This document shows, piece after piece, positions 5,508 to 30,309 of a stretch of 33,002 nt of DNA. The notes below the pieces were generated by a model. It worked only from the letters and a program-made list of their open reading frames with translations, did not search any database and was not told the origin of the DNA. This stretch comes from Arthrobacter sp. (GTDB lineage Bacteria > Actinomycetota > Actinomycetes > Actinomycetales > Micrococcaceae): assembly GCF_030540645.1 (NCBI RefSeq), contig NZ_JAUNVV010000028.1, forward strand, positions 1 to 33,002. The letters run 5' to 3'. Position 1 is the first letter of the stretch. The number at the start of each line of letters is the position of its first letter. Made by a program: the position numbers and the translations under genes.

Positions 5508-5812
5508 AGTCATTCCCATCTCGAGCAACAGCAGAGGCAGAATCCCCTTCAGACTACTAGAGACAGCTCAGGGCACAAGGTATCTCAGCTCTAAAGCCTG
5601 CACGGGCAGGATTGCTGCCCTCGTGCAAACAAGTTTGTTCGTGTCTGCACGGTTTGCCGGGTTGCCATGCCATACGACTATCCGAGTCCGCCTTACTCAG
5701 CAGAGCTCCATATGGGAAAGCCACTAATCTGTGGAGGACCATGCTCGAGACGTACCAGTTGCAGTGATTTTATGTTCGCCCACTACGAGCTTTAGAGAAT
5801 GTAGACCACCGA

Positions 5813-5849
5813 TGGGCCTCCTATGGGATTCGAACCCATGACCCCCGCT
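5813..5849 (-). repeat. left copy of tRNA 3'-end direct repeat (putative att site)
   Basis: On the minus strand these 37 bases read as the 3' part of a tRNA: a GGGGGTC junction, a T-arm with a perfect 5-bp stem and TTCGAAT loop (5823-5839), then the 3' acceptor strand AGGAGGC. No D-arm or anticodon arm can be found on the 5' side (5850 upward), so this is a fragment and not a tRNA gene. An identical 37-mer lies at 30273-30309 in the same orientation. The match continues outward as GACCACC (5804-5810), giving 44 of 46 identical bases. This is what attL/attR of an element integrated into a tRNA 3' end look like. Confidence 0.7.
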
Positions 5850-6174
5850 GTCGACGCGATCGACCAATTCGACTTGTCAAAAGCCATTTCTGGCCCTCAT
5901 CCTCGTGGCAGACGCATGACAATACATGGTACTGAAGAGTCGGCACTCGTCACCCAATTTAATGAGTTTCTAATGAGTCGGTTGCATCCAGCTGATGGTT
6001 TCAGTCATTCGTTTTCACCTGTGTGGAACAGCAGGCTTCTCAACCTGCCAATAATGGCCGTCACGAGCACTCTGCCAGGCAGTACAGCTCTGCAGACCAC
6101 GGCGGGTCAAATGGGGCTCGACGCTCTGGGCGCTCATGCGTAGATATACAGATTCATGACCCCGGTCTCATGAC
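5850..6174. other. left internal edge of island, non-coding
   Basis: About 325 bases between the left tRNA-fragment repeat and the fecB terminator. An open frame on the plus strand runs through it, but its first codons are the tRNA fragment itself and it has no recognisable product. The only structure seen is the tandem motif AATGAGT-TTCT-AATGAGT at 5961-5978, which has a counterpart at 29928-29945. Confidence 0.45.
5961..5978 (+). repeat. tandem AATGAGT motif, left end
   Basis: Two AATGAGT heptamers start 11 bases apart (5961 and 5972), preceded by AATTT and followed by CGGT. Near the right end, CATGAGT and AATGAGT at 29928-29945 have the same 11-base spacing, the same orientation and similar flanks. 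One helical turn between paired short repeats inside each end of the island is the arrangement expected of arm-type integrase binding sites. The role is inferred. Confidence 0.4.
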
Positions 6175-6222
6175 AACGGCAAAGGGCCGGGCAGCCCAAG
6201 GGGTGCCCGGCCCTTTGCCGTT
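6175..6222 (-). terminator. strong hairpin terminator after fecB
   Basis: A perfect 18-bp inverted repeat (arms 6175-6192 and 6205-6222; left arm AACGGCAAAGGGCCGGGC) encloses a 12-base loop. It lies 11 bases beyond the stop codon of the binding-protein gene. No T-run follows, which is common for actinobacterial terminators. Confidence 0.85.
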
Positions 6223-6233
6223 GAGGACGAGGC

Positions 6234-7238
6234 CTAGCTGAAGGTTGTCCCGAGCAGATCCACCAGCTGGGTGGAGCTGTAGTAGTCAAGGCGGAAGGAC
6301 GTCGGCCCCATGGCCACGACCAGTCCGGATTTGACCGACGGGAGGTTGGCGAGGACCTTCTCGCCCTCGAACGCCTTCACGACGGAGTCGTCGGCGGCGA
6401 GCAGGAAGACGGTGTTACCCATGGCCGCCTTGGTCAGGTTTTCAAAAGAAATGAAGGCGAAGTCCTGCCGGGCCTGGTCACTGGTGTCAAGGCCCTCCGG
6501 TACGTCGGCGATCATAAATCCGAGGGACTCGAGCACCTTGGCGTGGGTGCCTGTCAGCTTGGCGACGCCGTTGTCCTGGCCCGGGCCGTTGTAGCTGATG
6601 ATGTTAGATTCGCCGGCCGGGAGCTTGATCTTGGCTGCTACATCCTTCACGTGGGCATCGTACTTGGCGACCACGGCATCGGCATCGGCCTCATGTCCGG
6701 TTGCCTTACCCAGTTCTAGGGCCAGATCCTGCCAGGTCTTGTCACCGTAGTTCACCACGATGGTCGGGGCGATGGCACTCAGTTCCTTGTAATGATCCGC
6801 CGTGCTGTCGGCGCCGGAGGTGGAGACCACAATCAGGTCCGGAGCTGCTGCCACGACGGACTCGAGGTCAAACTCCAGGTTGGGGTACAGCACGCCCACG
6901 TTGCGTTCCTTGGCGACGTCAGCCCACTGCGAGAAGAAGCCCTGGCTGTCCGTGACGTCGCTGGGGTTGGTTGCCGCAGATGAGACGACAGGGGCCTCAA
7001 TAGCCAGCAGGGTGCCCGTGACACTCAGGGACGTGGAGACAATCTTCTTCGGCTGGGACGGGATGACGGTCTCGCCGTCCTCGTGCGTGATGGTCCGAGG
7101 CCACGATACCTCGCTCCCGGCGCCTACGGTTCCGGCATTCGCCGCGTCCTCGCCAGTGGTCCCCGAGCAACCGCTCAGAGCTATGCCCGCCGCGGCCGCG
7201 ACCGCGATTAAGGGCAGTAGTTTGCTTCTAAACTTCAC
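6234..7238 (-). CDS. fepB: ferric-siderophore ABC transporter substrate-binding lipoprotein
   Basis: A 334-residue exported lipoprotein. The signal peptide MKFRSKLLPLIAVAAAAGIA ends in lipobox LSGC (Cys24). Two lobes typical of cluster A/class III periplasmic-binding (FecB/FepB) proteins follow: PKKIVSTSLSVTGTLLAIEAPVVSSA, FDLESVVAAAPDLIVVSTSGAD and APTIVVNYGDKTWQDLALELGKATG in lobe one; FISFENLTKAAMGNTVFLLAADD and SFRLDYYSSTQLVDLL in lobe two. These resemble FepB, the ferric-enterobactin binder, and fit capture of the ferric form of the siderophore made by the neighbouring genes and delivery to FepDG. The start is GTG 7238 with GAGGAG 8 bases upstream. It has its own iron box (7332-7350) and a strong terminator, so it is a single-gene, iron-repressed transcript separate from fepDGC. 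Confidence 0.9.
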   Translation of the reverse strand: MKFRSKLLPLIAVAAAAGIALSGCSGTTGEDAANAGTVGAGSEVSWPRTITHEDGETVIPSQPKKIVSTSLSVTGTLLAIEAPVVSSAATNPSDVTDSQGFFSQWADVAKERNVGVLYPNLEFDLESVVAAAPDLIVVSTSGADSTADHYKELSAIAPTIVVNYGDKTWQDLALELGKATGHEADADAVVAKYDAHVKDVAAKIKLPAGESNIISYNGPGQDNGVAKLTGTHAKVLESLGFMIADVPEGLDTSDQARQDFAFISFENLTKAAMGNTVFLLAADDSVVKAFEGEKVLANLPSVKSGLVVAMGPTSFRLDYYSSTQLVDLLGTTFS

Positions 7239-7331
7239 AGTGTTTTCTCCTCAAAGGGGTGGTGCATGTGGGGTGGACGAGTGTGCCCGCAGATCGCGGC
7301 TCCGGTTTTCCGGATCGTCAATGCTGAAAAG

Positions 7332-7350
7332 TTAGCATAGGCTTACCTAA
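7332..7350 (-). promoter_or_regulatory. iron box (DtxR/IdeR/DmdR1 operator) of fecB
   Basis: Read on the minus strand this is TTAGGTAAGCCTATGCTAA, matching the 19-bp DtxR/IdeR palindrome TTAGGTTAGSCTAACCTAA at 16 positions. It ends 93 bases before the fecB start and lies between that start and the end of the PPTase gene. With iron-loaded repressor it should shut off fecB. Confidence 0.85.
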
Positions 7351-7370: not shown

Positions 7371-8123
7371 TTATGACGTAATTATGTGCGGCGTCTGGCC
7401 GGGGCGTAGGTCACCGGAATTCCCCCGCAGGAGCAGTGTCGCGACACCAGTTACGCACACGGCTGCCGAGTGCCCGGCACCCGTCGGGACGAGCTGCACA
7501 GTAAGGCGCTGGAGTGGTTGCTGGGATGCCGTCCATGCATCCGGGGACGCGAAGCAGAGCCGCGCGGGGTCTTGCCTCAGCCCCACCCCCGTTGCCTTAA
7601 GGAGCGCTTCCTTGCGAACCCAGAAGTCGGCGCGGGCCATCCCCCGCCGCGATGCCGGCAACCCGGCGACCCACTCCCGTTCCGCCGCCGACAGCGCAAT
7701 GTTGTCAAAGCCGGCAAAGGCAGTTGATGCGTGCGCTTCAACGTCGACGCCGATGGCGGGACCGTCCGTCACGGCCACCAGGACGTGGCCTTGTGCGTGC
7801 GAGACGCTGGCGCGCAGCTGCTCCACTGGCCGCCCGCCGCGGACATAGCGAAGCACAGGCTTGTCCTCCGGTGCGGTCCCGGCCGGTAGGTGGACACTTG
7901 CGGGCTCGATGCCGAAGTCCCTGGCCAGCAGGCCCTTAAGTAGGACCCTGGCCGTTGCCGAGCGGTCCCTATCCCCCTGCCGCCGTCTGCCGGAAAGTAG
8001 TTCACGCTCGGCCGCGCTCAAGAGTGGGGAAGCAGCGGCCGCTGGGTCGGGCGGGCCCTGAGCTATCCAGACCGTGGCTGGGTGCACCCAGCCGTTCCTG
8101 TCCCGCGCCGCATCGGCGTTCAT
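7371..8123 (-). CDS. 4'-phosphopantetheinyl transferase (Sfp/EntD type)
   Basis: A 250-residue cytosolic enzyme that moves phosphopantetheine from CoA to the carrier-domain serines, here most likely NRPS Ser1026 and Ser2571 and EntB Ser254. Visible motifs are SVSHAQGHVLVAV (residues 106-118), GVDVE (125-129, Mg2+ ligands Asp127 and Glu129) and FWVRKEALLKATG (167-179, with the conserved W-x-x-K-E-A core). Together they define the two-lobed Sfp/EntD family. Its ATG overlaps the stop of the exporter gene (ATGA), so it is the last gene of the biosynthetic run. Its stop codon lies 20 bases before the fecB iron box. Confidence 0.9.
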   Translation of the reverse strand: MNADAARDRNGWVHPATVWIAQGPPDPAAAASPLLSAAERELLSGRRRQGDRDRSATARVLLKGLLARDFGIEPASVHLPAGTAPEDKPVLRYVRGGRPVEQLRASVSHAQGHVLVAVTDGPAIGVDVEAHASTAFAGFDNIALSAAEREWVAGLPASRRGMARADFWVRKEALLKATGVGLRQDPARLCFASPDAWTASQQPLQRLTVQLVPTGAGHSAAVCVTGVATLLLRGNSGDLRPGQTPHIITS

Positions 8124-9457
8124 CGCTTGGCCTCAATTGACGGTTCACTCGTGGAACGTGATGCCTGTTCAACGCCCTCCCCTTGATCGCTGTCCACGAT
8201 CCGGTCCGCACGGCGCAGGGGCCCGAATCCGGTCAGGCCAGCAAGTCCGAGGACCATGGCCCCTGCGCCGAACAGGGTTACGGCGGCAGCAGCCGGCACA
8301 GCGCGCCCCAGTCCGCCCAGTCCCAGCGCCCCAGCGGAGTCGCCGCCTACTTCCTGGGCCATCCACAGTGCGTTGACGCGGCCCAGCAGCCGGTCCGGGG
8401 TGTGCGCCTGCACCAGCGCGTATTGCAGGATGCCGCTCATGGAACCCAGTGCCCCAAAAATAATCAGGAAAATCAGCGCCGAGCCCAGCCCTCCCCCCGT
8501 CCAGCTGGCAACCCCTAGCGCACCGAGGCTGACAAAAGACCCAATGGACAGAAGCATCATCGCCCTGCCCGGGCGCCGCAGGCCGGCCAGCGGGCCGCTC
8601 AGCAGCGTTGCGGCCACGGCTCCGCAGGGCACAGCCGCATACAGCAGACCCGTGCTCTGGGCGCCGATGCCAAGGGGCCCAGCTGCCAAGGCAGGCAACA
8701 TGACCCTGATTCCGGAAGCCATCGTCTCCAACGTGCCGAGCAGGACCACACCCCTGATCACCGGTTGGCGATACACGAACACGGCGCCTTCGACGGCGGC
8801 CCGCAAGGGGTGACCTGGCGGGGCGGAGGCATCGGGCTTCAGCGGCGGCAGGCCCGTTAACAAGGTGACGGTGAGCAGCGTCGCCGCGGCTGCACCCACA
8901 TAGGCCCAACCCACGCCAGCCACGGCGATGACGAATCCAGCCAGAGCGGGGGACACCATGGTTCCCAACCTCACTGTGAGCATGTTCAGTGCACCCGCTG
9001 CCGCCAACTTGTCCCGCGGCACGAGGGTCGGGGTGACTGCCATGAGCGCCGTGACGCTCAGTGCCCCAAAGAATCCGTCAAGTCCTCCGACCGCATAGAC
9101 CACCGCTACGGAGGGTTCGGGCAGCCAGGCATTGACGGCAAGTATGGCGAAGCCCGTCCCACCAATTATGCGGGAGTACAGAATGATCTTGCGCCGGTCC
9201 ATCCTGTCCGCGATGTCGCCACCCACCAGCATGCCGGCAAAGGCGCACAGCCCCTCCACCGTTGCGGCGGCACCGACCTGAAGGGTCGAGCCGGTGAGCC
9301 CATAGAGCTGGAGGGGAATGGCCACGGCCAGCATGCCCAGCCCGAAGATCGAGATGGTCCGGGCGATGAAGATCCGTCGGAATGCTGGGCTGGTTCGCAG
9401 GGGCCCCGTATCGATGACCAGCTGTCGCAAGCGGCTGGTAGTTTCAGTCTTGGTCAT
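8120..9457 (-). CDS. entS: EntS-like MFS siderophore exporter
   Basis: A 445-residue, 12-helix MFS protein. The N-terminal half closely follows E. coli EntS (YbdA), the enterobactin exporter: LRTSPAFRRIFIARTISIFGLGMLAVAIPLQ, GGDIADRMDRRKIILYSR (MFS loop 2-3), LNAWLPEPS-like AVNAWLPEPSVAVVY, DGFFGALSVTALMAVTPTLVPRD and GALNMLTVRLGTMVSPALAG. These are quoted from several segments and are not contiguous. It should pump the finished siderophore out across the cytoplasmic membrane. The start overlaps the end of the sip gene by 14 bases, and its stop overlaps the PPTase start, so it is translationally coupled to both. Confidence 0.9.
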   Translation of the reverse strand: MTKTETTSRLRQLVIDTGPLRTSPAFRRIFIARTISIFGLGMLAVAIPLQLYGLTGSTLQVGAAATVEGLCAFAGMLVGGDIADRMDRRKIILYSRIIGGTGFAILAVNAWLPEPSVAVVYAVGGLDGFFGALSVTALMAVTPTLVPRDKLAAAGALNMLTVRLGTMVSPALAGFVIAVAGVGWAYVGAAAATLLTVTLLTGLPPLKPDASAPPGHPLRAAVEGAVFVYRQPVIRGVVLLGTLETMASGIRVMLPALAAGPLGIGAQSTGLLYAAVPCGAVAATLLSGPLAGLRRPGRAMMLLSIGSFVSLGALGVASWTGGGLGSALIFLIIFGALGSMSGILQYALVQAHTPDRLLGRVNALWMAQEVGGDSAGALGLGGLGRAVPAAAAVTLFGAGAMVLGLAGLTGFGPLRRADRIVDSDQGEGVEQASRSTSEPSIEAKR

Positions 9458-10283
9458 CGTTGTCCTCGGCGTGATGGTCCAGACCGGCCACGCCGGCCTT
9501 CCAGTACCCGTCGATGTCCATGTGGCCCGCAGGTACGCCTAGGACGTCGCGCACGTGGCGGCGGATCGGACGGACCGCCGAAGCCTCTCCGGCCACCCAG
9601 ACAAAGAGCCCGTCCACAGGGGCGGCGAAGGCCCGGACCGCGTCAGCCAAGACGCCTGGCCCGTGGACGGAACGGTCTAGGTACCTGAGCGTGGTGCCCG
9701 CCCGCCGGGGCAGCTCCACCTTTTCGGCCATGGAGGCCAGGCTGGCGAAAACGTGGGCAGTGGCGCCGGCCGGCAGCTCCTCCATCCAGCGGGCCATGGC
9801 TGGCAGCGCCGTTTCGTCGCCCGCGATCAGGTAGTTCTCGAAGCCGCCGGGGTACAGGTGGGAGCCCCTGGGCCCCAGGAACCCCAGTTGGTCGCCGGTG
9901 GTGGCGGACCGCGCCCACCGGCCGGCCGGGCCGTGGTCGTGGAGGACGAAGTCGATCGTGAGCCTCCCCGCGACGCGGTCCAGGGCCCGCACCGTGTAGT
10001 CCCTGAAGAGGGGGCGCGGGCGCCCCGGCGGCATGACGAGCCTGCCGTCGGCGACGGCGGGTAGGTGGATCTCCCCCGTCGCGGGTTCCGGGAAGACGAG
10101 CTTGACGTGGTCGGCAACCGCCAGCGGCAGGAACGGGAACGGTTCGCGCAGGTCGTCCCCGCCGAAGACCAGCCGCCGCATTGACGGGGCCAGCATCACA
10201 TCGTCCACAACGCACAGCAGACGCGGCACGAGCCGGTGCATGCGCAGTTGGATCTCTTGGCCGTCAACGGCAGTGGTGTTCAA
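9444..10283 (-). CDS. siderophore-interacting protein (FAD-dependent ferric reductase)
   Basis: A 279-residue cytosolic flavoprotein of the SIP/ViuB family, which reduces Fe(III)-siderophore using NAD(P)H and FAD to release Fe(II). Features are RDYTVR (residues 94-99, FAD-binding R-x-Y-T-V-R), IDFVLHDHGPAGRWA (the family HG-x-AGRWA segment), GDQLGFLGPRG, a YLIAGDETALPA nucleotide-binding stretch, WVAGEASAVRPIRRHVRDVLG and the C-terminal GYWKAG. The start is TTG 10283, whose TTGA overlaps the NRPS stop, with GAAAGG 7 bases upstream; ATG 10241 is possible but would remove beta-strand-forming residues. Its position inside the operon suggests it acts on this siderophore, alongside the Fes esterase. 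Confidence 0.9.
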   Translation of the reverse strand: MNTTAVDGQEIQLRMHRLVPRLLCVVDDVMLAPSMRRLVFGGDDLREPFPFLPLAVADHVKLVFPEPATGEIHLPAVADGRLVMPPGRPRPLFRDYTVRALDRVAGRLTIDFVLHDHGPAGRWARSATTGDQLGFLGPRGSHLYPGGFENYLIAGDETALPAMARWMEELPAGATAHVFASLASMAEKVELPRRAGTTLRYLDRSVHGPGVLADAVRAFAAPVDGLFVWVAGEASAVRPIRRHVRDVLGVPAGHMDIDGYWKAGVAGLDHHAEDNDDQD

Positions 10284-13200
10284 GGGTTTGCCTTTCGATG
10301 GGTGTGGTTGTTTTGGCTGTGGTGGCCTTTGGTTCCGGCCAGCAGCCTGGCCAGGCGCGGACCGAGGTCGGGGAGCGTTTCCGGGGACAGGATGTCCTCG
10401 TGCCGGCAGTCAACCCCATGGGTGGAAAGCGACTGGACCCGGCCCGCCCACGCCGCCTGGGGCTCGTAGCCCTCGGGCAGGGTTTTGGCGGCAACGAACA
10501 GTTCCGCCTTGCCCGGGAAGTGCGGCGTGACTGCGCTTGAGAGCAGCCGGACGGAGTCCTTGTAGTTGGCCACGATGTCCGCATCCATGCCGTCGGGCCC
10601 CTGCCCGGCGGCCTGGCCTAGGTCCCGCTGTTCACGTTCGGCCTCGGCCTCGGCAGCTGCCTCCCCGGCGCTCCAGTCCTGTCCCTCGGGCGGGTAGGTG
10701 TCCAGCAACCCGAGGAAGGACACTTTCTCGCCCTCGTGCGCAAGCCTGGCGGCAAGGGCGTGGGCGATGGTCCCACCGAGCGAGTAGCCGAGCAGGCTGT
10801 AGGGGCCGTGCGGCTGCAGCGAGCGGATGGTGGCATAGTGCCGCTCGTGGACGTCCGACAACGCTGAGGCGCCCGCAAGGGCGCCGACGGGGCGCGGGGA
10901 CTGGAGCCCGACGAGCGCCTGGTCTCCGTCGAGGTACCGTGCCAGTGCCCGGTACTGCCAGGCGAATCCGGAGGCCGGGTGGATGCAAAACAACGGATTT
11001 CCGCTGCCTTGGCGGATCGGCAGGACCTCCCCGAACGCCTCACGCCCGTCCGAGGCGTCCTTGATCCGGCGGGCCAGGGCCTCGACGGTGCCGGCGGCCA
11101 TGATGCTGCCGACCGGGACCTTGCGGCCCAGCTCACGGCCCAGCCAGGCGGCCAGGCGCATGGCCAACAGGGAATGGCCGCCCAGGGCGAAGAAATCGTC
11201 CGCGGCGCCGGGGTCCGGCACGCCCAGAACGGCGGTGAAGCCGGCTGCGACCGCTTCTTCCAGCACGCCCCGTGGCCGACGGCCTGAGCGGCGGTCCGGC
11301 GCCGGGTCCGGCAGGGCATTGCGGTCAAGCTTTCCGTTGCTGGTCAGCGGAAACGCCCCCAACACCAGCACGGCGACAGGCACCATATGGGCAGGCAACA
11401 GGCGTTCGCACGCCTCCCTGCACCGTGCCACGAGTACCTCCGGGCCGGCGTCGGCACCCTGCCCGGGGTGATCGGTCGGGACGATGTACGCGGCCAGGAT
11501 CCGGTCGTCGGCGCCGTGCAGCCCGGCGGCAGCCCCGCCTCCAGAGCCCCCGGCGGCCCTGGCCGCCACCACGGCCGCCCCGATGCCCGGCACATCGGCC
11601 AGCACGGACTCAATCTCGCCCAGCTCGATCCGCTGTCCGCGGATCTTGACCTGGTCGTCGGCACGCCCCAGGTACTCCACGTCCCCGCCGGGCAGCCGTC
11701 TGACAATGTCGCCGGTGCGGTACATGCGCACCCCGGTTCCGTACGGGTTGGCCACGTAGCGCCCGGCCGTGAGCCCCGCCTTGCCCAGGTAGCCGGTGGC
11801 CAGCTGCGCTCCCGCCAGGTACAGCTCCCCCGCGACGCCCGGCGGAGCCGGGCGCAGCATCCCGTCAAGGACATGCAATTCGGTGTTCCACACGGGCGCA
11901 CCGATGGGCACCGATCCGGTCAGCTGCCCGGGCACCGGGTCGACACCCCGGAACCAGCTGACGTCCACGGCCGCCTCGGTGGGCCCATAGAGGTTGTGCA
12001 CGGCCACCCCGAACGCGGCCTCGGCCTTCGCGGCCAGCTCACGTGAGAGTGCCTCACCGCTGCAGAAGGCCCGGCGCAGTGCAGGCAGCCCAGCCCCTGC
12101 CGGGCCTTCGCCCGCGTCGGCAAGAAACGCGGCCAGCATGGACGGCACAAAGTGCACCGTAGTCGCGCCGCCGTCGCGCATCAGTTCGCGCAGCAGCACG
12201 GGGTCCTTGTGGGCCCCGGGCGGAACAACCAGTTGGGATGCCCCGGCTAGGAACGGCCAGAAGAATTCCCACACGGAGACGTCAAAGCTGGACGGGGTCT
12301 TTTGGACCACGACGTCTTCCGCACCCAGTGGGTGGGCGTCCTGCATCCACAGGAGCCGGTTGACGATGGCACGGTGGGGCACCACGACCCCCTTGGGGCG
12401 GCCCGTGGAACCGGAGGTGTAGATAACATAGGCGGGGTGGTCGGGAGTGAGTTCCGCCGCCACCTGCAGGCGCCAGCCCGCAGCGCAGCCGGTCTCCCCC
12501 ACTTGGACAGCACCGACGGCCGCTCCGTCGACCAAGATGGTGTTCGTGCCCGCAGGCAGCCCGGGCGCCAACTCCACCGTCGTCAGCACCGCCTGCGGGG
12601 CCGCGTCGGCCAGCATATAGGCCAGACGCTCTGCCGGGTACTCGGTGTCCAGGGGAAGGTAAGCGGCCCCCGCCTCGATGACGGCCAGCAGCGAAATGGT
12701 CAGTTCCGCGGAGCGGGGGACGCTGACGGCAACGATGTCCCCCGTGGCCACCCCTGCGCTGCGCAGGCGGCGGGCCAGGGCCAAGACCCGTTCCCGCAGC
12801 TCGGCATGGCTGTGACTGCGGGCGCCGTTGCGCAAGGCAACGGCGCCGTCCGCCAGCACGCCCCTGCCATCCAGCAGGTCCCGGAGCGTCACAGGTGGCA
12901 GCGCATGCCGGGTGTCGTTCGCGGCCTGCAGGGCGGCACGTTCAGCGTCCAGGAGGGTCTCGGCGGCCACAAGGGTTTTCCCGCCATCGGAAACCACTCG
13001 GGAGACCGCGGCCAGGAAACGCGGCAGGATGAAGGCGCCGGCCCCCTCGCCGAGGCGGTGTTCAACGACCACCCGGTACCCGGCGCTCTCCGGGAGCACG
13101 AGCACCGTCAGCGGGTAGTGGGTGTAGCCGCGGTTGCGGACACCGGAGAGGCGCAGCCCGGAGCCTTCCCGGCCTGAAGGGTCCCCGTCGGCCGGGTAAT

Positions 13201-18883: not shown

Positions 18884-18896
18884 GGAGTCTTCCTTC

Positions 18897-20105: not shown

Positions 20106-21743
<1,638 letters not shown>

Positions 21744-21745
21744 GG

Positions 21746-22903: not shown

Positions 22904-22934
22904 GAAATGCCTTTCATTGAAGATTTCCTTGGGT

Positions 22935-23723
22935 TCAGGCGCGCAGGGTGGCGCCGCCGTCGACGTACAGGTCCTGCATGGTGATGTGCCGTGCGCGCTC
23001 GGAGAGGAGAAAAAGTGCGGCGTCGGCGATGTCTCCGGGGTCGGCCAGCCGCCCCAGCGGGATGCCGACACGGAACTGTGCCGGATCCCCGGTGAGCACC
23101 GAGTGCAGGCCCCCTTCCCTGTCAGAGCCCCACATGCGACGCTGCATGTCGGTGTCCGTCGATCCCGGGCACACGGTGTTGCACCGGATTCCTTGCGGCG
23201 CCAGCTCGAGCCCGATGGCTCGCATGAGCGCGGCGGCGGCCGCCTTTGACGCTGAATAGACCGGCATCGTGGCCCGTGGCACACCGGCGGCGTTGGATCC
23301 GATGTACACGATTGACCGGTTCCTGGCCGGGCTTTCCAGCAGCTGACGGGCCGCCGCGGTCGCCACCAGAAAGGTACCGTCGGCGTTGACGGACATGACG
23401 TGCCGCCACTCCGCAAGGCCTGTTGCCAGGGCGGAGCCCGTCGACAGGACACCGGCCGCGTGGACCACTGCCGCCAGATGGCCGTCCAGCCGCGAGATGG
23501 TCTCGAAGAGTCCGTCCACGGAATCCGGGTCACTCACGTCCGTCGGGACGGTCACCAAGTTGGGGCCGCCGAGCTCACCCGCCACGCCGTCAAGGCCCGC
23601 CGCATCATGGTCGGCAAGAACCAGCATGCAGTCGGGTCCGCTTTCGGCGCGGATCCGCAGGGCACATGCCCTGCCGATGCCCCCTGCCGCTCCTGTCACA
23701 AGCACCACTGTCCCTGGTGTCAC
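22935..23723 (-). CDS. entA: 2,3-dihydro-2,3-dihydroxybenzoate dehydrogenase
   Basis: A 262-residue short-chain dehydrogenase that oxidises the EntB product to 2,3-dihydroxybenzoate with NAD+. SDR marks are VTGAAGGIGRA (residues 9-19, cofactor loop), HAAGVLS (N-A-A-G position), Ser143, and Tyr156-Ala-Ser-Lys160 (in YSASK), then a PGSTDTDM loop and a YVDGGATL C-terminus. Assignment to EntA rather than another SDR rests on the neighbouring entC, entE and entB. The start is GTG 23723 with only a weak GAGG 10 bases upstream. It is the first gene of the biosynthetic run, 57 bases downstream of an iron box. Confidence 0.92.
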   Translation of the reverse strand: MTPGTVVLVTGAAGGIGRACALRIRAESGPDCMLVLADHDAAGLDGVAGELGGPNLVTVPTDVSDPDSVDGLFETISRLDGHLAAVVHAAGVLSTGSALATGLAEWRHVMSVNADGTFLVATAAARQLLESPARNRSIVYIGSNAAGVPRATMPVYSASKAAAAALMRAIGLELAPQGIRCNTVCPGSTDTDMQRRMWGSDREGGLHSVLTGDPAQFRVGIPLGRLADPGDIADAALFLLSERARHITMQDLYVDGGATLRA

Positions 23724-24147: not shown

Positions 24148-24213
24148 GCCCCGCCCCGGGTGGTCGCAGCTGTTGCGGCCACCCGCCCCCTCGCCAAAGG
24201 AGAATCCCCGGTC

Positions 24214-25263
24214 ATGTCCACCATCCACCTGCGGCCCGCAGCGACAGCAGCGCCGCGGCGCCGGCGCCCACGTCCGGTGCTGGGATGGGCGCTGGGCTTG
24301 GCGCTGCTGGGAATCCTGTGCCTGGCCAGCATCGCCACGGGCAGTCGCACCATCCCGCTGAGCGAAACCTGGCAGGCCCTGACGGCCTTCGACCCGGGGA
24401 AGAGCACACACCTGCTGGTGGTTGAATTGCGACTGCCCCGGACCGTGTTGGCGGTCGTGGTGGGCGCAGCCCTGGCCCTGGCCGGGGCGCTCATGCAGGC
24501 ACTGACGCGAAACCCTCTCGCTGAGCCCGGCATACTCGGGGTCAACGCAGGTGCGGCCGCGGCGGTGGCGGTGGGGCTGGCGTTCTTCGGCGCCACCGCC
24601 CCACAGGAGTACATGTGGTTCGGTTTCGTCGGGGCGGGGGCGGCGTCGCTGGTGGTTCACACTTTGGGACGGGCCCACGACGCGGGAAACAACCCCGTCA
24701 GGCTCGTCCTGGCCGGCGCCGGGCTGTCGGTCATGCTCGGCTCGCTTACCGCCATCATCATCATTGCCGGTGATTCGACGCGCCTGCGCAACTACGTCAG
24801 CTGGGCCAGTGGTTCCCTGCAAGGTCGGGGCTGGGACGTGCTGCTGTGGGTCCTGGGAGCGTGCATCGTGGCGGCCGTGGCAGGGCTGGCGACGGCCCGG
24901 AGCCTGGATTCGCTCTCTCTCGGCAACGATCTGGGCAACGCCCTCGGGCTGAAAATGCGAACGACTTGGCTGGTGGGCACCGCCACCATCGTGCTGCTGG
25001 CAGGGACGGCCACGGCGGCCGCCGGGCCCGTCGGTTTTCTCGGCCTGGCAGCCCCGCACATGGCCCGCATGATCGTGGGACCCAACCATCGCCGCATGCT
25101 CCCCTACTCCATGCTTATCGGTGCGCTCCTGTTACTCGTTGCTGACATCCTTGGCCGCGTCATTGCTGCCCCCGGCGAGATCGGTGCCGGTATCATGAGC
25201 GCCGTCATCGGCGCACCGGTGTTTATCGCCCTTGCCCGCCGCCGGAAGTTGGTACAGCTGTGA
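24214..25263 (+). CDS. fepD: ferric-siderophore ABC permease, FepD type
   Basis: A 349-residue FecCD-family inner-membrane permease with about ten transmembrane helices. The family core reads LRLPRTVLAVVVGAALALAGALMQALTRNPLAEPGILGVNAGAA, here quoted as consecutive short pieces (LRLPRTVLAVVVG, LAGALMQALTRNPLAEP, GILGVNAGAA). GPVGFLGLAAPHMARMIVG is the cytoplasmic loop that docks the ATPase. It forms the channel with FepG. The start ATG 24214 is chosen for AAAGGAGA about 10 bases upstream; an upstream GTG at 24160 would add 18 residues without a ribosome site. The stop overlaps the fepG GTG start. Confidence 0.93.
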   Translation: MSTIHLRPAATAAPRRRRPRPVLGWALGLALLGILCLASIATGSRTIPLSETWQALTAFDPGKSTHLLVVELRLPRTVLAVVVGAALALAGALMQALTRNPLAEPGILGVNAGAAAAVAVGLAFFGATAPQEYMWFGFVGAGAASLVVHTLGRAHDAGNNPVRLVLAGAGLSVMLGSLTAIIIIAGDSTRLRNYVSWASGSLQGRGWDVLLWVLGACIVAAVAGLATARSLDSLSLGNDLGNALGLKMRTTWLVGTATIVLLAGTATAAAGPVGFLGLAAPHMARMIVGPNHRRMLPYSMLIGALLLLVADILGRVIAAPGEIGAGIMSAVIGAPVFIALARRRKLVQL

Positions 25264-26300
25264 GCGCCACATATACCGACCGTAGGAACAGGTTCGGCAT
25301 CCCCGCACCTGCCCGGCCTGGCCGCACTGTCGGCATCGGCCTCCTCCTGGCCGCGGCCGCAGGGGTGCTGGGGATCATCTCCATGCAGACAGGCACCATC
25401 GCCTTTTCCTTCCATGAAGTCTTCGTCGCTGTCTTTGGCTCCTCGCCGGACCCAAGAGCCTCCCTGGTTGTCCAGAACATCCGCCTCCCCCGCACTGTAA
25501 CTGCCTTGGGCGTCGGCCTATGCCTCGGTGCAGCCGGCGCCACGTTCCAGTCAATTTCACGTAACGCCCTGGGCTCTCCCGACATCATCGGCTTCACCAC
25601 AGGGGCCGCGACGGGCGCTGTCGCGCAGATCATGCTGTTCAACGCCGGGCCCGCGGCGACAGCGGTGGCGGCTATCTGCGGGGGGCTTGTGACGGCCGCC
25701 GTCGTCTACATCTTGTCCCTGCACGGCGGGGTCACTGGAGGTTTCCGCCTGGTGCTGGTCGGCATCGGCGTCGGGGCTCTTCTTGCAGCAGTGAACACGC
25801 TGATGCTGGCCAAGGGCAACGAGGATCTGGCGGCCCAAGCCAACCTGTGGCTGTCCGGTTCACTTGCCTCCCGAACCTGGGATCATGCAGTCCCTGTCCT
25901 GGTGGCCGTGCTGTTGCTCCTCCCGATCCTGCTCGCCCAGGGGCGCAGCCTCGGGCTGCTGGAAATGGGCGACGACGTTGCTCGCGCCTTGGGGGTGAGA
26001 GTCGAGGCAAGCCGGCTCGTTTCCATGGCGGCCGCCGTTGGGCTGACGGCCGTGGCCACCGCCGCGGTGGGCCCGATAGCGTTCGTCGCGCTTGCCGGCC
26101 CACAACTTGCCGCCCGGCTCACCCGTTCCGTCCAGGTGCCCGTAGGGACCGGGGCCTTGATGGGGGCCGTGCTCATGGTCGCCTGCGACCTGCTCACGCA
26201 GCGTCTGCCCCTTGGCGCGCACGTGCCGATTGGGCTGATGACCGGGCTCGTGGGCGGCTGCTACCTGCTGTGGCTTATCACTAGGAGCAAGAACATCTGA
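25260..26300 (+). CDS. fepG: ferric-siderophore ABC permease, FepG type
   Basis: A 346-residue FecCD-family permease and partner of FepD. Features are NIRLPRTVTALGVGLCLGAAG, TFQSISRNALGSPDIIGFTTGAA (the second-subunit version of the RNPLA-P-ILG motif), a long hydrophobic core, and AVGPIAFVALAGPQLAARLTRS for contact with the ATPase. The start is GTG 25260, overlapping the fepD stop as GTGA; the stop at 26298-26300 shares one base with the fepC ATG. It therefore belongs to one coupled transcript, fepD-fepG-fepC-fes. Confidence 0.92.
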   Translation: MSATYTDRRNRFGIPAPARPGRTVGIGLLLAAAAGVLGIISMQTGTIAFSFHEVFVAVFGSSPDPRASLVVQNIRLPRTVTALGVGLCLGAAGATFQSISRNALGSPDIIGFTTGAATGAVAQIMLFNAGPAATAVAAICGGLVTAAVVYILSLHGGVTGGFRLVLVGIGVGALLAAVNTLMLAKGNEDLAAQANLWLSGSLASRTWDHAVPVLVAVLLLLPILLAQGRSLGLLEMGDDVARALGVRVEASRLVSMAAAVGLTAVATAAVGPIAFVALAGPQLAARLTRSVQVPVGTGALMGAVLMVACDLLTQRLPLGAHVPIGLMTGLVGGCYLLWLITRSKNI

Positions 26301-27220
26301 TGCACGCCACAAGAAAGACCTTTGATGGGAGAACCTCCGTGACCACCACCTCCACCTCGCCGGGATATAACGGCGGAACTGGGAATGCCGATGTGCTCTC
26401 CGGCCACGGCCTGGACATCGGCTACGACAGCCACCAAATTTCCCGTGGGCTGGACGTTGTCATCCCACCGGCGTCCTTCACAGCCATCATCGGCCCCAAC
26501 GCCTGCGGGAAGTCCACCCTGTTGCGGGCCCTTTCACGCCTGCTCAAGCCCACGGCCGGGACAGTACTGCTGGAGAGCAAAGACATCCATGGGTACCGCA
26601 CCCGCGACGTGGCCCGGCGCCTGTCGCTGCTGCCGCAGTCATCCACGGCTCCGGACGGCATCACGGTAGGCGACCTCGTGGCTCGCGGCCGCTTCCCCCA
26701 CCAGGGGCTACTGCGGCAGTGGACGGATCAGGACAGGTCCGCGGTGGCTTCGGCCATGGCCGCCACCGGCATCACCGAGCTCGCGGACCGGGCCGTCCGG
26801 GAATTGTCCGGCGGCCAGCGACAGCGCGTGTGGCTGGCCCTGGCCCTGGCACAGGACACTCCCATCATGTTGCTGGACGAACCGACCACTTACCTGGACA
26901 TCGCCCACCAGCTGGACGTACTGCGACTGTGCCGCAGACTTCATCGCACCGGCAACTACACCCTCGTCACGGTCCTGCACGACCTTTCCCTGGCGTTCCG
27001 CTTCGCCGACCACGTCATCGCCATGAAAGACGGGCGCATCGTGGCGCAGGGCCCGCCCGCGGAGATCGCCACGCCAGAGCTCATGCGCGAGGTATACGGC
27101 ATCGAGTCGGTCGTCATCGAGGACCCGGCCACAGGCGGGCCGCTCGTGGTCCCGCTGGAACCCGACGAGCTTGCAGGCCCGGCGGCGACCACCGCCGTGG
27201 GAACAAGGGCCCGGGCATGA
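26300..27220 (+). CDS. fepC: ferric-siderophore ABC transporter ATPase, FepC type
   Basis: A 306-residue cytosolic ATPase that powers import through FepDG. Motifs are Walker A GPNACGKST (residues 65-73), Q-loop SLLPQSS (109-115), signature LSGGQRQR (169-176), Walker B IMLLDEPT (189-196) and the switch His227 in VLHDLS. All catalytic residues are present. The start is uncertain: ATG 26300 overlaps the fepG stop, but GTG 26339 has a better-spaced GGAG 7 bases upstream. The N-terminal 30 residues are low-complexity either way. The C-terminal tail beyond about 285 is also unusual for the family and rich in Ala. Confidence 0.93.
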   Translation: MHATRKTFDGRTSVTTTSTSPGYNGGTGNADVLSGHGLDIGYDSHQISRGLDVVIPPASFTAIIGPNACGKSTLLRALSRLLKPTAGTVLLESKDIHGYRTRDVARRLSLLPQSSTAPDGITVGDLVARGRFPHQGLLRQWTDQDRSAVASAMAATGITELADRAVRELSGGQRQRVWLALALAQDTPIMLLDEPTTYLDIAHQLDVLRLCRRLHRTGNYTLVTVLHDLSLAFRFADHVIAMKDGRIVAQGPPAEIATPELMREVYGIESVVIEDPATGGPLVVPLEPDELAGPAATTAVGTRARA

Positions 27221-28560
27221 ACGCTCCTTCAATTCCCGGTGCCATGCCGGAGCCCTTCCCCGCACCGCGGGACCCAGTTCCCGGGCCTGCACCGTCCATC
27301 CCCGTGTTGCGCGGTCATTTCCGTTCCTCTTGGGATGGCTGGGGGCCCGCGCGCCGGGACGCGTTCCTCCAGAATCTCGCAGGCGGCACAGGGGCGCCCC
27401 TGGTCGACCCTGCCCCGGACGGCCGTAGCACCCACCGCGCCGTGACCTTTTTTCATCTGGATCCGGCTGCCTCGGCGGTGATCCTCTCCGCCAACGCCCT
27501 CGTCAACCACCTGGATGTGAGCGCTAGCGAGTTTGAGTGGCTCGGCAATTGCGGCTTCTGGGCGCTCACCTACCTGATGCCGGCCGACTGGGAGTCAGGC
27601 TACCGGGTCACCGTCCACACGGGACCCGGCCCGGCTCCGTGGCGGGCGGCCAAGGAGCGCCGACCCATCCGCATGGCAGCCGACGCCGGAGGGCCCGACC
27701 CCCTCAACCCCTTACTGGGTGCGGGCATGAACGGCGGGCCCACCTCGGTGGTGCGGCTGCCCGCGGCCCCTTCCGCCCCGTGGCTGGCAACCGTCTCTCC
27801 CCGCCCTTTCGCGGGCAGCCCGGCCATGGGCGGGGACCCCAGTGAGGGCGGGCTGCCCTGCAGTGAGGATGCCCCGGGCCTTGAATGCCTCAGGGTCACG
27901 GACTCGGGCGCCGGACGGGTGCGCACGGTGTGGCTTTATTCCCCACCCCCGGGATCCGCCACGGGCCCGACACCACTGCTGCTCCTGCACGACGGGCAGG
28001 TCTGGGCGAAGTACCTCAATCTCAAGGCGACCCTAGACGCGGCCGTGGGCGCCGGCGTCGTGCCCGCCATCCACGTAGCCATGATCGACTCCCTCGACGT
28101 CGAGACGCGCTCACGGGAGCTTAGTGGACCTACCGGTACCGTCGACTTCGTGGCCGTTGACCTCCTGCCGCTGCTCCGCCGACACCTGACCGTCCGTACC
28201 GACGCCCCGGGGACTATCGTCTCCGGCGCCAGCTACGGCGGACTCGCCTCGCTGTGGCAATTGGCCCGGCACCCTCACCTCGTGGGGGTGGCCCTGGCCC
28301 AGTCGCCCTCGCTGTGGCGCTACGACCTGGCCAGGCCGTTGCGAGACGTGGTGGACCGGGTCACGATCCGCCTCCAAGCCGGCATCTACGAACCCGACAT
28401 CCACGAGACTACGCAACGGCTTTACGCAGACCTTGTCCCGCTCGGGGCCGACGTCGGGCTGTGCACCGTCACCGGCGGTCACGACTGGGCCTGGTGGAAC
28501 ACCTGGCTCATCCATGGGCTCGCCGAGCTCCTGGACACCGCCCCGTCATGCTCGTCATGA
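27217..28560 (+). CDS. fes: enterochelin-esterase-like ferric siderophore esterase
   Basis: A 447-residue cytosolic hydrolase. The N-terminal part (about 30-200) is the enterochelin-esterase N-domain (AVTFFHLDPAASAVILSANAL, FEWLGNCGFWALTYLMPADW). The C-terminal part (about 225-447) is an esterase D-type alpha/beta hydrolase with a nucleophile elbow SGASYGG (Ser339), LLLLHDGQVWAK and the late GGHDWAWW (His422), all as in Fes. It should cut the serine ester backbone of the imported ferric siderophore, so its presence supports a Ser-lactone product. The frame is open upstream through fepC, but ATG 27217 overlaps the fepC stop as ATGA, with AAGGG upstream. It is last in the uptake operon apart from a small coupled frame. 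Confidence 0.93.
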   Translation: MNAPSIPGAMPEPFPAPRDPVPGPAPSIPVLRGHFRSSWDGWGPARRDAFLQNLAGGTGAPLVDPAPDGRSTHRAVTFFHLDPAASAVILSANALVNHLDVSASEFEWLGNCGFWALTYLMPADWESGYRVTVHTGPGPAPWRAAKERRPIRMAADAGGPDPLNPLLGAGMNGGPTSVVRLPAAPSAPWLATVSPRPFAGSPAMGGDPSEGGLPCSEDAPGLECLRVTDSGAGRVRTVWLYSPPPGSATGPTPLLLLHDGQVWAKYLNLKATLDAAVGAGVVPAIHVAMIDSLDVETRSRELSGPTGTVDFVAVDLLPLLRRHLTVRTDAPGTIVSGASYGGLASLWQLARHPHLVGVALAQSPSLWRYDLARPLRDVVDRVTIRLQAGIYEPDIHETTQRLYADLVPLGADVGLCTVTGGHDWAWWNTWLIHGLAELLDTAPSCSS

Positions 28561-28805: not shown

Positions 28806-29164
28806 TCGCCAGGCTGATCGGGCCGGAACGGAACGTGGTGGAGAATTAAGCCTTCGTGGTAGCTTCCGATCCGCACTCACACACAAATGCCCTCAGCTGA
28901 CTCGCCGGCCCCATTGGCGGCATCGTCATTGCCCCGCATAAATCCCACATGCATCATGACGGCCATGGTGCGGGCGCCCTGCTTTCGTTATCTCCTATGG
29001 CATAGGAAGCGTCTGAAGTTCTAACCGTAAGAGTTGGCGTTCACTTCTCAGTCCGTGATGAAAAATAAGATACGAAAATGGCACTAATTAGTTTGGCGAA
29101 GGTGGGGGTACCGTGGACGTAATCGGGCCGAACTGGCCGGATCGAAACATACAAGGAGATCATC
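28806..29164. other. non-coding stretch upstream of DUF1540 gene
   Basis: About 360 bases without a recognisable gene. It holds a perfect palindrome with 6-bp arms (TCCTAT-GGC-ATAGGA, 28993-29007), about 160 bases before the DUF1540 start, and an AT-rich stretch near 29060-29095 that could hold its promoter. No iron box was found here. Confidence 0.4.
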
Positions 29165-29458
29165 ATGACTGTCACCGTCCCCATCTCGGAATGCGCCGTG
29201 GAGAACTGTTCCTTCAACAACCACACCCACTGTGGCGCCGCCGGCATCACCATTGGCGGGCACGCCGACCATGCCCAGTGCGCAACCTTCATCGACACTG
29301 GCGTCCACGGCGGACTGCCAAAAGTTCTGGCCTCCATTGGGGCTTGTCAACGGACCGAGTGCGTTCACAACGACCATCTAATGTGCAATGCGTCATCTGT
29401 CCGAGTGGGACCGGGCGCCGACAACGCGGACTGCCTGACGTACGAGCACTCCGTCTAG
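29165..29458 (+). CDS. tandem DUF1540 cysteine-rich protein
   Basis: A 97-residue cytosolic protein with an excellent ribosome site (AAGGAG, 6 bases before ATG). It consists of two DUF1540 units, each with exactly the spacing C-x4-C-x7-C-x15-C: Cys10, 15, 23, 39 and Cys61, 66, 74, 90. Four-cysteine units of this kind are expected to bind a metal such as zinc, though the family has no settled function. It is the last intact gene inside the right repeat. It is separated from the uptake operon by 600 bases and has no iron box of its own, so a link to iron handling is only suggested by position. Confidence 0.8.
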   Translation: MTVTVPISECAVENCSFNNHTHCGAAGITIGGHADHAQCATFIDTGVHGGLPKVLASIGACQRTECVHNDHLMCNASSVRVGPGADNADCLTYEHSV

Positions 29459-30011
29459 AACTACAGCCAGGTTTATTTTTGCATGCGTCGACGTACTCTT
29501 CAGATTTCAGCCGCGAATCCTACCAATTGTTGCGGGTTAGTGGTGATGTGTGGGCAGTAGCGGTACAGACGTGGGCTCGGCCCTAGAGTAAATCAGCAAT
29601 CTGATCGGGGATGGTTCACGCAGAGCGTGTCGCGGAATCCTGAGTCAATTATGCCCGCAGGCTGTTTGCGGGTAAGAGCCCGGAAGTTGTTGAATCTGAA
29701 ATCGCAGCTAGCCGAAGTTCCGTATCGAGGGCCCTACCTGCCACAGGCGCAGGGTGAACCCGGAAGAGAGGGCCGAATCAGCCGGGCCGGCCTGACCAGA
29801 CCCATGTTCGGGCATAATCTGGACGCTGGCATCGATATTGAACGCCCCACTGGGTCCGCGGTGTACCGGCGCTTCGCAATTCGGCATGGTGGGGGATTGA
29901 TCCGGCATGGGCCGTCGCCGTTAATTTCATGAGTTTGCAATGAGTTCGGTCGAAACGGCGTCACTGATGCCCCTTCCCTACAGCAAACCCGAAGGTCAGA
30001 GGCATCTTCCG
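29459..30011. other. gene-poor right edge of island
   Basis: About 550 bases without a convincing gene; short frames on both strands have no recognisable product. It looks less GC-rich than the biosynthetic genes. The only ordered element found is the AATGAGT-type tandem motif at 29928-29945. No transposase or integrase remnant could be identified by eye. Confidence 0.45.
29928..29945 (+). repeat. tandem AATGAGT motif, right end
   Basis: CATGAGT at 29928 and AATGAGT at 29939 are 11 bases apart, preceded by AATTT and followed by TCGGT. The spacing, orientation and flanks match the pair at 5961-5978 near the other end of the island. It lies about 75 bases inside the first of three tRNA 3' fragments. 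An arm-type integrase site is the suggested role. Confidence 0.4.
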
Positions 30012-30046
30012 GAGTATCTGTCGGATTCGAACCGACGACCTTTGCG
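30012..30046 (-). repeat. tRNA 3'-end fragment (second tRNA type)
   Basis: On the minus strand this reads AAAGGTC, a perfect T-arm (30020-30036, 5-bp stem GTCGG/CCGAC with TTCGAAT loop), then AGATACTCC. No D-arm or anticodon arm precedes it, so it is a fragment. It differs from the flanking 37-bp repeat, so it came from another tRNA species or another integration event. Confidence 0.55.
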
Positions 30047-30150
30047 TTCGAACACCAAAGCCATTTAGACGCGAAAAAACGGGGCGGAAACCCACCCCGC
30101 CACTGCGAAAACCCTGTAAATCCGGGCTTTTTGGCCCCAAAAAAACTCGA

Positions 30151-30182
30151 GGGCCCCTATCAGATTTGAACCGACGACGGTT
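30151..30182 (-). repeat. tRNA 3'-end fragment (third, degenerate)
   Basis: The minus strand reads CCGTC, then a T-arm-like segment (30159-30175, loop TTCAAAT, stem with two G-U pairs), then AGGGGCC. The 5' half of a tRNA is missing. It lies between the fragment at 30012 and the right island repeat at 30273, making three tRNA 3' fragments within about 300 bases. Confidence 0.45.
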
Positions 30183-30272
30183 GCAATCTATGCGGTCAAT
30201 ATCCCTGAAAATGGCCCATTTCGCGGCAAAAACGCCCATTGTTGAGGGCCCTTGGCAACTACCGACCACCAT

Positions 30273-30309
30273 TGGGCCTCCTATGGGATTCGAACCCATG
30301 ACCCCCGCT
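30273..30309 (-). repeat. right copy of tRNA 3'-end direct repeat (putative att site)
   Basis: Identical over 37 bases to 5813-5849 and in the same orientation, with the outward GACCACC also kept at 30264-30270. The T-arm is 30283-30299. The sequence 5' to it on the minus strand (30310 upward) does not form an anticodon or D-arm and runs straight into the 3' end of the permease gene, whose stop is at 30322. So neither copy is an intact tRNA gene; the original tRNA has been lost or lies elsewhere. Confidence 0.7.

What the first reader, a model, noticed from the sequence alone, without database searches (positions are those of the whole stretch)
5804..30309. Whole siderophore locus lies between direct copies of a tRNA 3' end
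The same 37 bases (5813-5849 and 30273-30309), extending to 44/46 with the outer GACCACC, occur in the same orientation. They read as the T-arm plus 3' acceptor strand of a tRNA. Every siderophore gene lies inside; unrelated genes lie outside. This is the expected footprint of site-specific integration into a tRNA gene. Oddly, neither end has an intact tRNA and no integrase is visible, so the element may be an old or non-autonomous island that moved a complete iron-acquisition system as one cassette.
Basis: partly seen in the sequence, partly recalled or inferred. Interest (0 to 1): 0.8.

Follow-up and report, generated by a model that had tools for sequence, protein, structure and literature searches.

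The report
Siderophore island at tRNA-Thr attachment sites
In an Arthrobacter-like bacterium, a complete set of iron-scavenging genes sits between two copies of the tail of a threonine tRNA gene; its nearest held relative has the same chromosome with one copy and no iron genes, the mark of a passenger DNA island without an integrase of its own.

Summary
The repeat is real: 44 of 46 bases, direct, 24,460 bp apart. It is the T-arm and 3' acceptor strand of tRNA-Thr(UGU), matched intact in 20 of 23 genomes of the genus. The predicted empty site exists: in the nearest held relative, G008, left flank (window 1-5849) and right flank (from 30264) join across one repeat copy, without the siderophore block.

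Across the genus the fragment recurs; all 20 fragments on contigs that also hold tRNA-Thr share its strand. A tyrosine integrase gene abuts the tRNA in 16 of 20 genomes. One tRNA-proximal element has relaxase and type IV secretion genes. The window block has att cores and arm-type repeats but no integrase: a CIME-like island in a tRNA-Thr accretion system.

Refinements: two further core fragments lie at 30010-30045 and 30149-30184. The G008 site is a tRNA remnant. Recent exchange with a distant congener (98.2% over 22.4 kb) stops at the operon ends (6175, 28574), not at the repeats. Two congeners carry the cluster elsewhere without fragments. Closest precedent: Dehalococcoides ssrA islands. 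New member of a known kind.

The parts
5804..5849 (-). left att core: 46-bp direct repeat, T-arm plus 3' acceptor strand of tRNA-Thr(UGU)
   Evidence: the tRNA identified
5850..6112 (-). left-end (L-end) repeat that precedes cores in congeners
   Evidence: nhmmer hits in G001, G003, G005, G022; 77% to G022
5962..5978 (-). arm-type direct repeats ACTCAT at -130 and -119 from the 36-nt core (a further ACTCTT at 5935-5940, -92)
   Evidence: of 34 fragments, 15 have the motif at -119 or -118 and 6 at -130
6174..6223 (.). 24-bp inverted repeat, likely terminator of the siderophore operon; the 98% identity to G022 starts at 6175
6234..7238 (-). siderophore-binding protein (Peripla_BP_2)
7371..8123 (-). 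4'-phosphopantetheinyl transferase
8120..9457 (-). MFS transporter, probable exporter
9444..10283 (-). siderophore-interacting FAD-binding protein (SIP)
10280..18883 (-). NRPS; motif order fits C-A-PCP-E-C-A-PCP-TE (the E assignment is recalled from the LGGDS motif)
   Evidence: Pfam, motifs
19136..20050 (-). isochorismatase with carrier domain
20106..21752 (-). AMP ligase, probably 2,3-dihydroxybenzoate-AMP ligase (function inferred from context)
21746..23533 (-). isochorismate synthase (Chorismate_bind); the ORF as listed overlaps the next gene, so the true start is probably near 22.9 kb
22935..23723 (-). short-chain dehydrogenase, probably EntA type
24160..25263 (+). FecCD permease
25260..26300 (+). 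FecCD permease
26300..27220 (+). ABC ATPase of the uptake system
26719..28560 (+). ORF holding an enterochelin-esterase type hydrolase; true start probably near 27.2 kb
29920..30263 (-). right-end (R-end) repeat, recurring downstream of cores in G003 and G005
29929..29945 (-). arm-type direct repeats ACTCAT at +75 and +64 from the third core
   Evidence: the same offsets (+64 to +66 and +75 to +77) beside 14 of 20 intact tRNA-Thr genes
30010..30045 (-). third core fragment, the one with R-arms
30149..30184 (-). second core fragment
30264..30309 (-). right att core: second copy of the 46-bp repeat
4722..5528 (-). left flank: PEP mutase family gene, beside the empty site in G008
30322..31197 (-). 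right flank: ABC-2 type permease, beside the empty site in G008

Best explanation
The window holds an integrase-less genomic island, a CIME-like element, of the tRNA-Thr(UGU) site-specific integration system of this Arthrobacter-like genus. Steps: (a) tyrosine-integrase elements insert at the 3' end of tRNA-Thr(UGU), each leaving a 3'-end duplicate, so tandem accretion builds a series of cores in one orientation (the pattern is shown by comparison, the act inferred); (b) one such element carried the complete siderophore system and has lost, or never had, an integrase, but keeps a core and L-arms at one end and cores plus R-arms at the other (shown); (c) between the window's lineage and G008 the 24,460-bp block was gained or lost exactly at the core, next to the PEP-mutase-family gene (shown); (d) excision and integration are catalysed in trans or in cis by a resident tRNA-Thr element, which in one congener looks conjugative (inferred); (e) the cargo also spreads between species by exchange bounded by the operon ends (the boundary is shown, the mechanism inferred).
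For: Empty site: window 1-5849 matches G008:C30 up to 54609 at 93.5-94.2% (in two blocks) and window 30264-30975 matches from 54566 at 89.8%; the two overlap only in the core. Parent tRNA: tRNA-Thr(TGT) ends in the same fragment. Cores: 34 fragments of at least 27/36 in 1.53 Mb of fetched regions (chosen because they hold matches), none on the other strand; 20 of the 34 lie on contigs that also hold tRNA-Thr and all 20 are on its strand; 0 outside tRNAs in 1.69 Mb of control DNA. Arms: ACTC[AT][TC] at -119/-118 in 15 of 34 fragments and at +64-66 with +75-77 beside 14 of 20 intact tRNA-Thr genes, and at both ends of the window block. Integrase at 81-453 bp from tRNA-Thr in 16 of the 20 genomes with the tRNA, PF00589. 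G022's tRNA-proximal element encodes a TrbL/VirB6 protein, a TraG-type coupling protein, a TrwC relaxase and an ArdC-like protein. In G022 the siderophore block is the last element before an anchor shared with G001, which has no match to the ligase. Exchange: 98.2% over 22,418 bp between G000 and G022, NRPS third positions differ at 80 of 2,868, although a 3-kb chromosomal stretch is only 70-74% identical outside its RNA gene.
Against: R-arms sit beside the third core (30045), not beside the core that forms the empty-site junction (30308), so which core pair would recombine now is unclear. 19 of 34 fragments lack an L-arm motif at -119/-118 and 6 of 20 intact tRNA-Thr genes lack the R-arm pair. 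The G008 core differs from the G000 cores by 5 substitutions and 2 one-base gaps over 37 positions, more than the flanks' roughly 6-10%, so G008 is not a clean ancestor of either copy. The tRNA-proximal integrase of G022, the genome with the conjugation genes, is split over two frames, and that of G005 has an internal stop; a second G022 integrase has an open frame. G000 lacks tRNA-Thr(UGU) in its assembly and has no family integrase at E<=1e-60; the distance from this island to the tRNA is unknown, and 14 of 34 fragments are on contigs without the tRNA. The flanking PEP-mutase gene's relative lies far from the array in G005.
Confidence: 0.8

Rival explanations
1. The block was ancestral to both G000 and G008, and G008 lost it by ordinary recombination (RecA or slippage) between the two 46-bp direct repeats; no recombinase acted recently. 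(Compatible with the island origin in the best explanation.)
For: The repeats are near-identical and direct, and a deletion would leave the same single-copy junction. No integrase in the window's contig.
Against: Only 2 of 23 genomes have this version of the ligase (G000, G022) and 2 more a 73-75% version elsewhere. The G008 core differs more from the G000 cores than the flanks do. Gain or loss does not change the origin of the repeats as att cores, given the arms and the genus-wide pattern.
Confidence: 0.3
2. The siderophore cluster is an old chromosomal locus of the genus, and tRNA-like fragments merely happen to flank it in this lineage.
For: G002 and G012 carry the collinear cluster with no core, L-end or R-end at E<=0.1 in the 40 kb fetched. 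Identity to G022 falls at the operon ends, not at the repeats.
Against: The exact empty site, arms at the expected offsets at both ends, and T-arm fragments flanking the block in G022 too.
Confidence: 0.06
3. The cargo was moved by homologous recombination between already present island ends; the att sites served only in an older acquisition. (Compatible with the best explanation as a later step.)
For: G000 and G022 share diverged L-end (77%) and weakly similar right-end sequence around a 98% interior.
Against: Does not by itself explain absence of the whole block in G008 at the core. Homologous exchange without shared high-identity flanks is inefficient (general knowledge).
Confidence: 0.3

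Closest known systems
Dehalococcoides ssrA genomic islands (PMC3146451; passages read)
   Same: Tandem islands downstream of one RNA gene, each bounded by a copy of its 3' end; 15 islands there lack the integration module and are suggested to be cis-mobilizable; a sharp identity step (75.0 versus 99.4%) between integration module and cargo, as here between ends and cargo (77 versus 98%).
   Different: Target ssrA and a serine recombinase there; tRNA-Thr(UGU) and a tyrosine integrase here; cargo vcrABC there, siderophore system here.
CIMEs and accretion, as defined in PMC5704250 (passages read)
   Same: An element that lost integration and transfer genes but keeps attL and attR, found in tandem with ICEs or IMEs.
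   Different: Mobilization not tested; composite right end with three cores.
RUSTI and the iron-uptake composite transposon of cheese actinobacteria (PMC6579920; passages read; PMC5526665 seen only in the search listing)
   Same: Horizontal exchange of iron-uptake genes among actinobacteria.
   Different: [quoted passage not shown] here a full NRPS siderophore system.
Yersinia high-pathogenicity island at tRNA-Asn (recalled, nothing read)
   Same: Siderophore island at a tRNA gene.
   Different: Keeps its integrase beside a tRNA gene; different siderophore class (recalled).

Membership tests
CIME (cis-mobilizable element) | flanked by attL and attR of a site-specific recombination system | tested here: met
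   cores at both ends with arm motifs at the offsets seen elsewhere; empty site. Functionality of the sites not tested.
CIME (cis-mobilizable element) | no integration genes | tested here: met
   tblastn with 7 family integrases: no hit in the 35.9-kb contig at E<=1e-3; no recombinase domain in the ORFs scanned
CIME (cis-mobilizable element) | no transfer genes | tested here: met
   Pfam of the ORFs scanned inside shows only siderophore genes or nothing; not every small ORF was scanned
CIME (cis-mobilizable element) | in tandem with an ICE or IME | tested here: inconclusive
   ICE-like neighbour on the same contig in G022, its integrase split over two frames; not visible in G000, whose tRNA-Thr is not in the assembly
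CIME (cis-mobilizable element) | can be excised or transferred with a helper | not testable with these tools
   needs a wet experiment
tRNA-targeted tyrosine-integrase island | direct repeat equals the tRNA 3' end | tested here: met
tRNA-targeted tyrosine-integrase island | intact tRNA at one boundary | tested here: not met
   no tRNA in the window; the empty site in G008 is a core remnant
tRNA-targeted tyrosine-integrase island | own integrase | tested here: not met

The most novel reading that the evidence does not exclude
tRNA-Thr(UGU) in this genus anchors a cassette series in which conserved att ends are re-used while cargo is exchanged inside them: the siderophore module was swapped between species exactly between its terminator and its last stop codon while the surrounding ends stayed lineage-specific, and conjugative elements at the same tRNA drive the movement.
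Probability: 0.25. Interest if true: 0.65.

Novelty: new member of a known kind. Interest (0 to 1): 0.48.

Why it matters
It gives a clean natural case, with an exact empty site, an identified tRNA target, candidate arm sites and a candidate integrase, in which a whole iron-acquisition system became portable without carrying its own recombinase. Four literature searches, judged from titles and abstract starts only, listed no paper evidently describing a tRNA-Thr island series in Arthrobacter. It makes cis- and trans-mobilization by tRNA-Thr elements testable in a genus that is, to my knowledge (recalled), mostly environmental.

Tried and rejected
Rejected: an intact tRNA in the window. A phage or plasmid carrying the L-end: no match to window 5795-6020 among 50,697 phage and 72,556 plasmid records at E<=0.01. 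A virus as near source of the integrase: best phage match listed 39%; 21 viral contigs, 19 at 23-27% and two short stretches at 49 and 68%. Recombinase trios seen as the agent: not followed up, because the integrase beside tRNA-Thr is another gene. An ARAGORN 'tRNA-Lys' in G008:C30 (its DNA printed) and the 'tRNA-Ala' at a core in G012:C83 are taken as false positives (my judgement).

Limits. The one genome-contig scan (capped list of 80 loci) returned no member of this genus, so the genus name rests on one record: a plasmid of Arthrobacter sp. ERGS1:01 whose length, 754,192, and integrase coordinates equal those of contig C1 of G006. The 34-of-34 strand figure includes regions that I had oriented by their own core; the fair figure is 20 of 20 on contigs that also hold tRNA-Thr (21 of 21 if the G012 'tRNA-Ala' is counted as a fragment); for G005 (11 of the 20) 'downstream' assumes a circular chromosome. 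L-ends and R-ends are related by descent, so their arm offsets are not independent events. The chromosomal yardstick for G000 versus G022 is one 3-kb stretch plus one gene (81%). The threshold was 27 of 36 matches; the 30149-30184 fragment (26) and both fragments beside the G022 block (25 and 26) fall below it and are not in the counts. Lists were cut by the tool, and the table was cut in the middle, so I repeated the cluster comparison gene by gene.
Full report
Observation. Chance is excluded. Read on the minus strand they are the T-arm and 3' acceptor strand of a tRNA. The window has no intact tRNA. Two more fragments of this kind lie at 30149-30184 and 30010-30045, same orientation. In the whole 3.55-Mb assembly (164 contigs, 90.45% complete) the 66-base query matches only these two places at E<=0.001.

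Contents. Inside are a binding protein, phosphopantetheinyl transferase, MFS transporter, SIP-type protein, a 2,867-residue NRPS, isochorismatase with carrier domain, AMP ligase, isochorismate synthase, a short-chain dehydrogenase, two FecCD permeases, an ABC ATPase and an enterochelin-esterase-type hydrolase: by gene content a complete catecholate system (the product is inferred). NRPS motif order fits C-A-PCP-E-C-A-PCP-TE (the E assignment is recalled knowledge). Outside lie a PEP-mutase-family gene and a ketopantoate-reductase-family gene on the left, an ABC-2 permease and ATPase on the right. G+C in 1-kb windows is about 0.65-0.74 from 7 to 29 kb and 0.55-0.58 at both island ends.

The parent tRNA. 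In congeners the same 3' end belongs to tRNA-Thr(TGT). A pattern from its anticodon arm occurs once in each of 20 of 23 genomes of the genus; it is absent from G000 (the window's assembly), G010 and G017. The genus is Arthrobacter in the broad sense: contig C1 of G006 has the length, and the integrase coordinates, of a plasmid of Arthrobacter sp. ERGS1:01.

The empty site. G008 is the nearest held relative (96% over a 3-kb chromosomal stretch; flanks 93.5-94.2% left, 89.8-94.1% right). Window 1-5849 aligns to G008:C30 up to base 54609 (with about 1.5 kb extra in G008 near window 2000), and window 30264-30975 aligns from base 54566, with further blocks to the end of the contig. The overlap is one core copy, and the siderophore block is absent. 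G008's core is degenerate: 5 substitutions and 2 one-base gaps against the 37 bases, and it has no arm motif within 170 bp. Whether G000 gained or G008 lost the block is therefore not settled; the single-copy site is in either case a tRNA remnant.

The genus-wide system. The core query matched 23 of the 58 genomes searched as relatives: 22 of 23 of the window's genus (G000 included; some through the tRNA itself) and one other. With a 36-base scan (at least 27 matches), 34 fragments outside called tRNAs were found in 1.53 Mb of fetched regions, none on the opposite strand. These regions were chosen for holding matches and some were oriented by them; the fair test is the contigs that also hold tRNA-Thr, where 20 of 20 fragments (G001 2, G003 2, G005 11, G007 1, G012 1, G015 1, G019 1, G022 1) are on its strand. 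The other 14 cannot be placed relative to the tRNA. Eighty loci of other organisms plus five stretches of G002, G012 and G005 (1.69 Mb) gave none outside a tRNA. Sequence on either side is repeated as well: all L-end (window 5850-6172) and R-end (28575-30263) hits listed are in the tRNA's orientation, L-ends mostly just before and R-ends just after cores. At G005 79553-80061 the order is L-end, core, R-end: the junction expected between neighbouring elements or in a circle.

Arm sites. ACTC[AT][TC] occurs at -119 or -118 from the core in 15 of 34 fragments and at -130 in 6, and at +64-66 with +75-77 beside 14 of 20 intact tRNA-Thr genes. In the window the L-arms start at 5978, 5967 and 5940 on the minus strand, at these offsets (and -92) from the left core. 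The R-arms, at 29945 and 29934, are at these offsets from the third core (30045), not from the copy at 30308. So the right end is composite. In G022 the fragment beside the siderophore block at 79697-79732 has L-arms at -130 and -119 (the second as GCTCAT), while the one at 102894-102929 has none.

The integrase. A roughly 414-residue tyrosine recombinase (PF00589, 37.9 bits) lies 81-453 bp from the 3' end of tRNA-Thr, facing it, in 16 of the 20 genomes with the tRNA: G002, G004, G005 (one internal stop), G006, G007 (first 309 residues matched), G008, G011, G012, G013, G014, G016, G018, G019, G020, G021, G022 (split over two frames). In G003 it is 5.8 kb away with a remnant next to the tRNA, in G001 it follows a core fragment, in G015 none was found at E<=1e-60, and in G009 the contig ends 0.6 kb after the tRNA. 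No such gene is in the window's contig and none in G000 at E<=1e-60; since G000's tRNA-Thr is not in the assembly, this does not show that the strain lacks it. In G022 the tRNA-proximal element encodes a TrbL/VirB6 protein, a TraG-type coupling protein, an ArdC-like protein and a TrwC relaxase, and the next element begins with its own integrase, in one open frame. The plasmid copy of this site in ERGS1:01 likewise has type IV secretion genes beyond the integrase. A conjugative helper at this site is thus plausible in the genus, though not shown in the window's strain, and G022's own tRNA-proximal integrase may be broken.

Exchange between species. G022 carries window 6175-28574 at 98.2% over 22,418 bp; NRPS third codon positions differ at 80 of 2,868. 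Outside its RNA gene a 3-kb chromosomal stretch is 70-74% identical and the PEP-mutase gene 81%. This is recent exchange. Identity is uneven: 0.88-0.89 at 24250-24999, 0.92-0.94 at 6250-6749, 0.94-1.0 elsewhere in 250-base steps. It falls to about 77% left of the terminator hairpin and to about 68% past the last stop codon, although both genomes have related L-end sequence and core-like fragments outside. So what was recently exchanged was the gene module, not the island with its ends. In G022 the module is the last element before a conserved anchor: G001, with no match to the ligase, matches G022 at 95.6% up to tRNA-Thr, and again from 89 bp (G022) or 116 bp (G001) beyond the last core, at 94% for 300 bp and then 98.9% for 21 kb. 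G002 and G012 carry 12 of 12 compared cluster proteins in the same order (46-81% identity, ligase 75 and 73%) and neither compared flank protein within the 40 kb fetched, with no core, L-end or R-end there at E<=0.1.

Mechanism. Shown by comparison: the tRNA, the one-strand series of cores, the arm motifs, the integrase beside the tRNA, the empty site, the absence of integrase in the block, the exchange of the module. Inferred: that this integrase family made the cores, that it can still move the block, that a conjugative element carries it, and how the module is exchanged inside the ends.

What is known. CIMEs are defined as elements that lost integration and transfer genes but keep attL and attR, and tandem accretion with ICEs or IMEs is described (PMC5704250, passages). 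Dehalococcoides ssrA islands are the closest precedent: tandem islands bounded by copies of the RNA gene's 3' end, 15 of them without integration module, and an identity step at the cargo boundary of 75.0 versus 99.4% (PMC3146451, passages). Iron-uptake transfer among cheese actinobacteria is known (PMC6579920, passages). Searches with Arthrobacter, genomic island, tRNA and siderophore terms listed nothing that evidently describes this system (titles and abstract starts only). Hence: a new member of a known kind, unusually well delimited, with two open points of interest, the composite right end and the exchange of cargo inside conserved ends. On checking, counts of arms and strands were lowered, and the split integrase in G022 was added; confidence was lowered from 0.82 to 0.80 for that reason.

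Noticed in passing
30010-30045, 30149-30184, 30273-30308: Three tRNA 3'-end fragments 124 and 139 bp apart at the right end; R-end sequence spanning this composite also follows cores in G005 (62576-62920, 79720-80061) and G003 (139193-139542).
   Followed up: partly
G005:C1 4123571 and 56554-169550: Eleven core fragments over about 113 kb; 5 of 11 share the host tRNA's own one-base-shorter variant (AGCGGGGTC), suggesting local origin of those cores.
   Followed up: partly
G005:C1:35512-37950, G021:C1:1117059-1119408, G004:C45 and C72, G020:C16 and C4, G008:C85: Three adjacent tyrosine-recombinase genes (trios) recur in the genus (list cut); that of G021 lies 12 kb from tRNA-Thr and that of G005 19 kb from the first core fragment.
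   Followed up: no
window 18896-19168: Short conserved stretch (about 74% amino-acid identity over 81 residues to G012 and G002) between NRPS and isochorismatase, possibly an MbtH-like protein (recalled, not tested).
   Followed up: no
G000 assembly: No tRNA-Thr(UGU) found in the window's assembly, perhaps an assembly gap; also not matched in G010 and G017.
   Followed up: partly
window 24250-24999: First FecCD gene is only 88-89% identical to G022 within a module otherwise mostly 94-100%, suggesting a separate exchange or a mosaic.
   Followed up: no
window 1995-2000: G008 has about 1.5 kb more than the window here within the otherwise collinear left flank.
   Followed up: no
G022:C19 208-209 kb: The tRNA-proximal integrase is split over two reading frames next to otherwise ICE-like genes.
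   Followed up: partly
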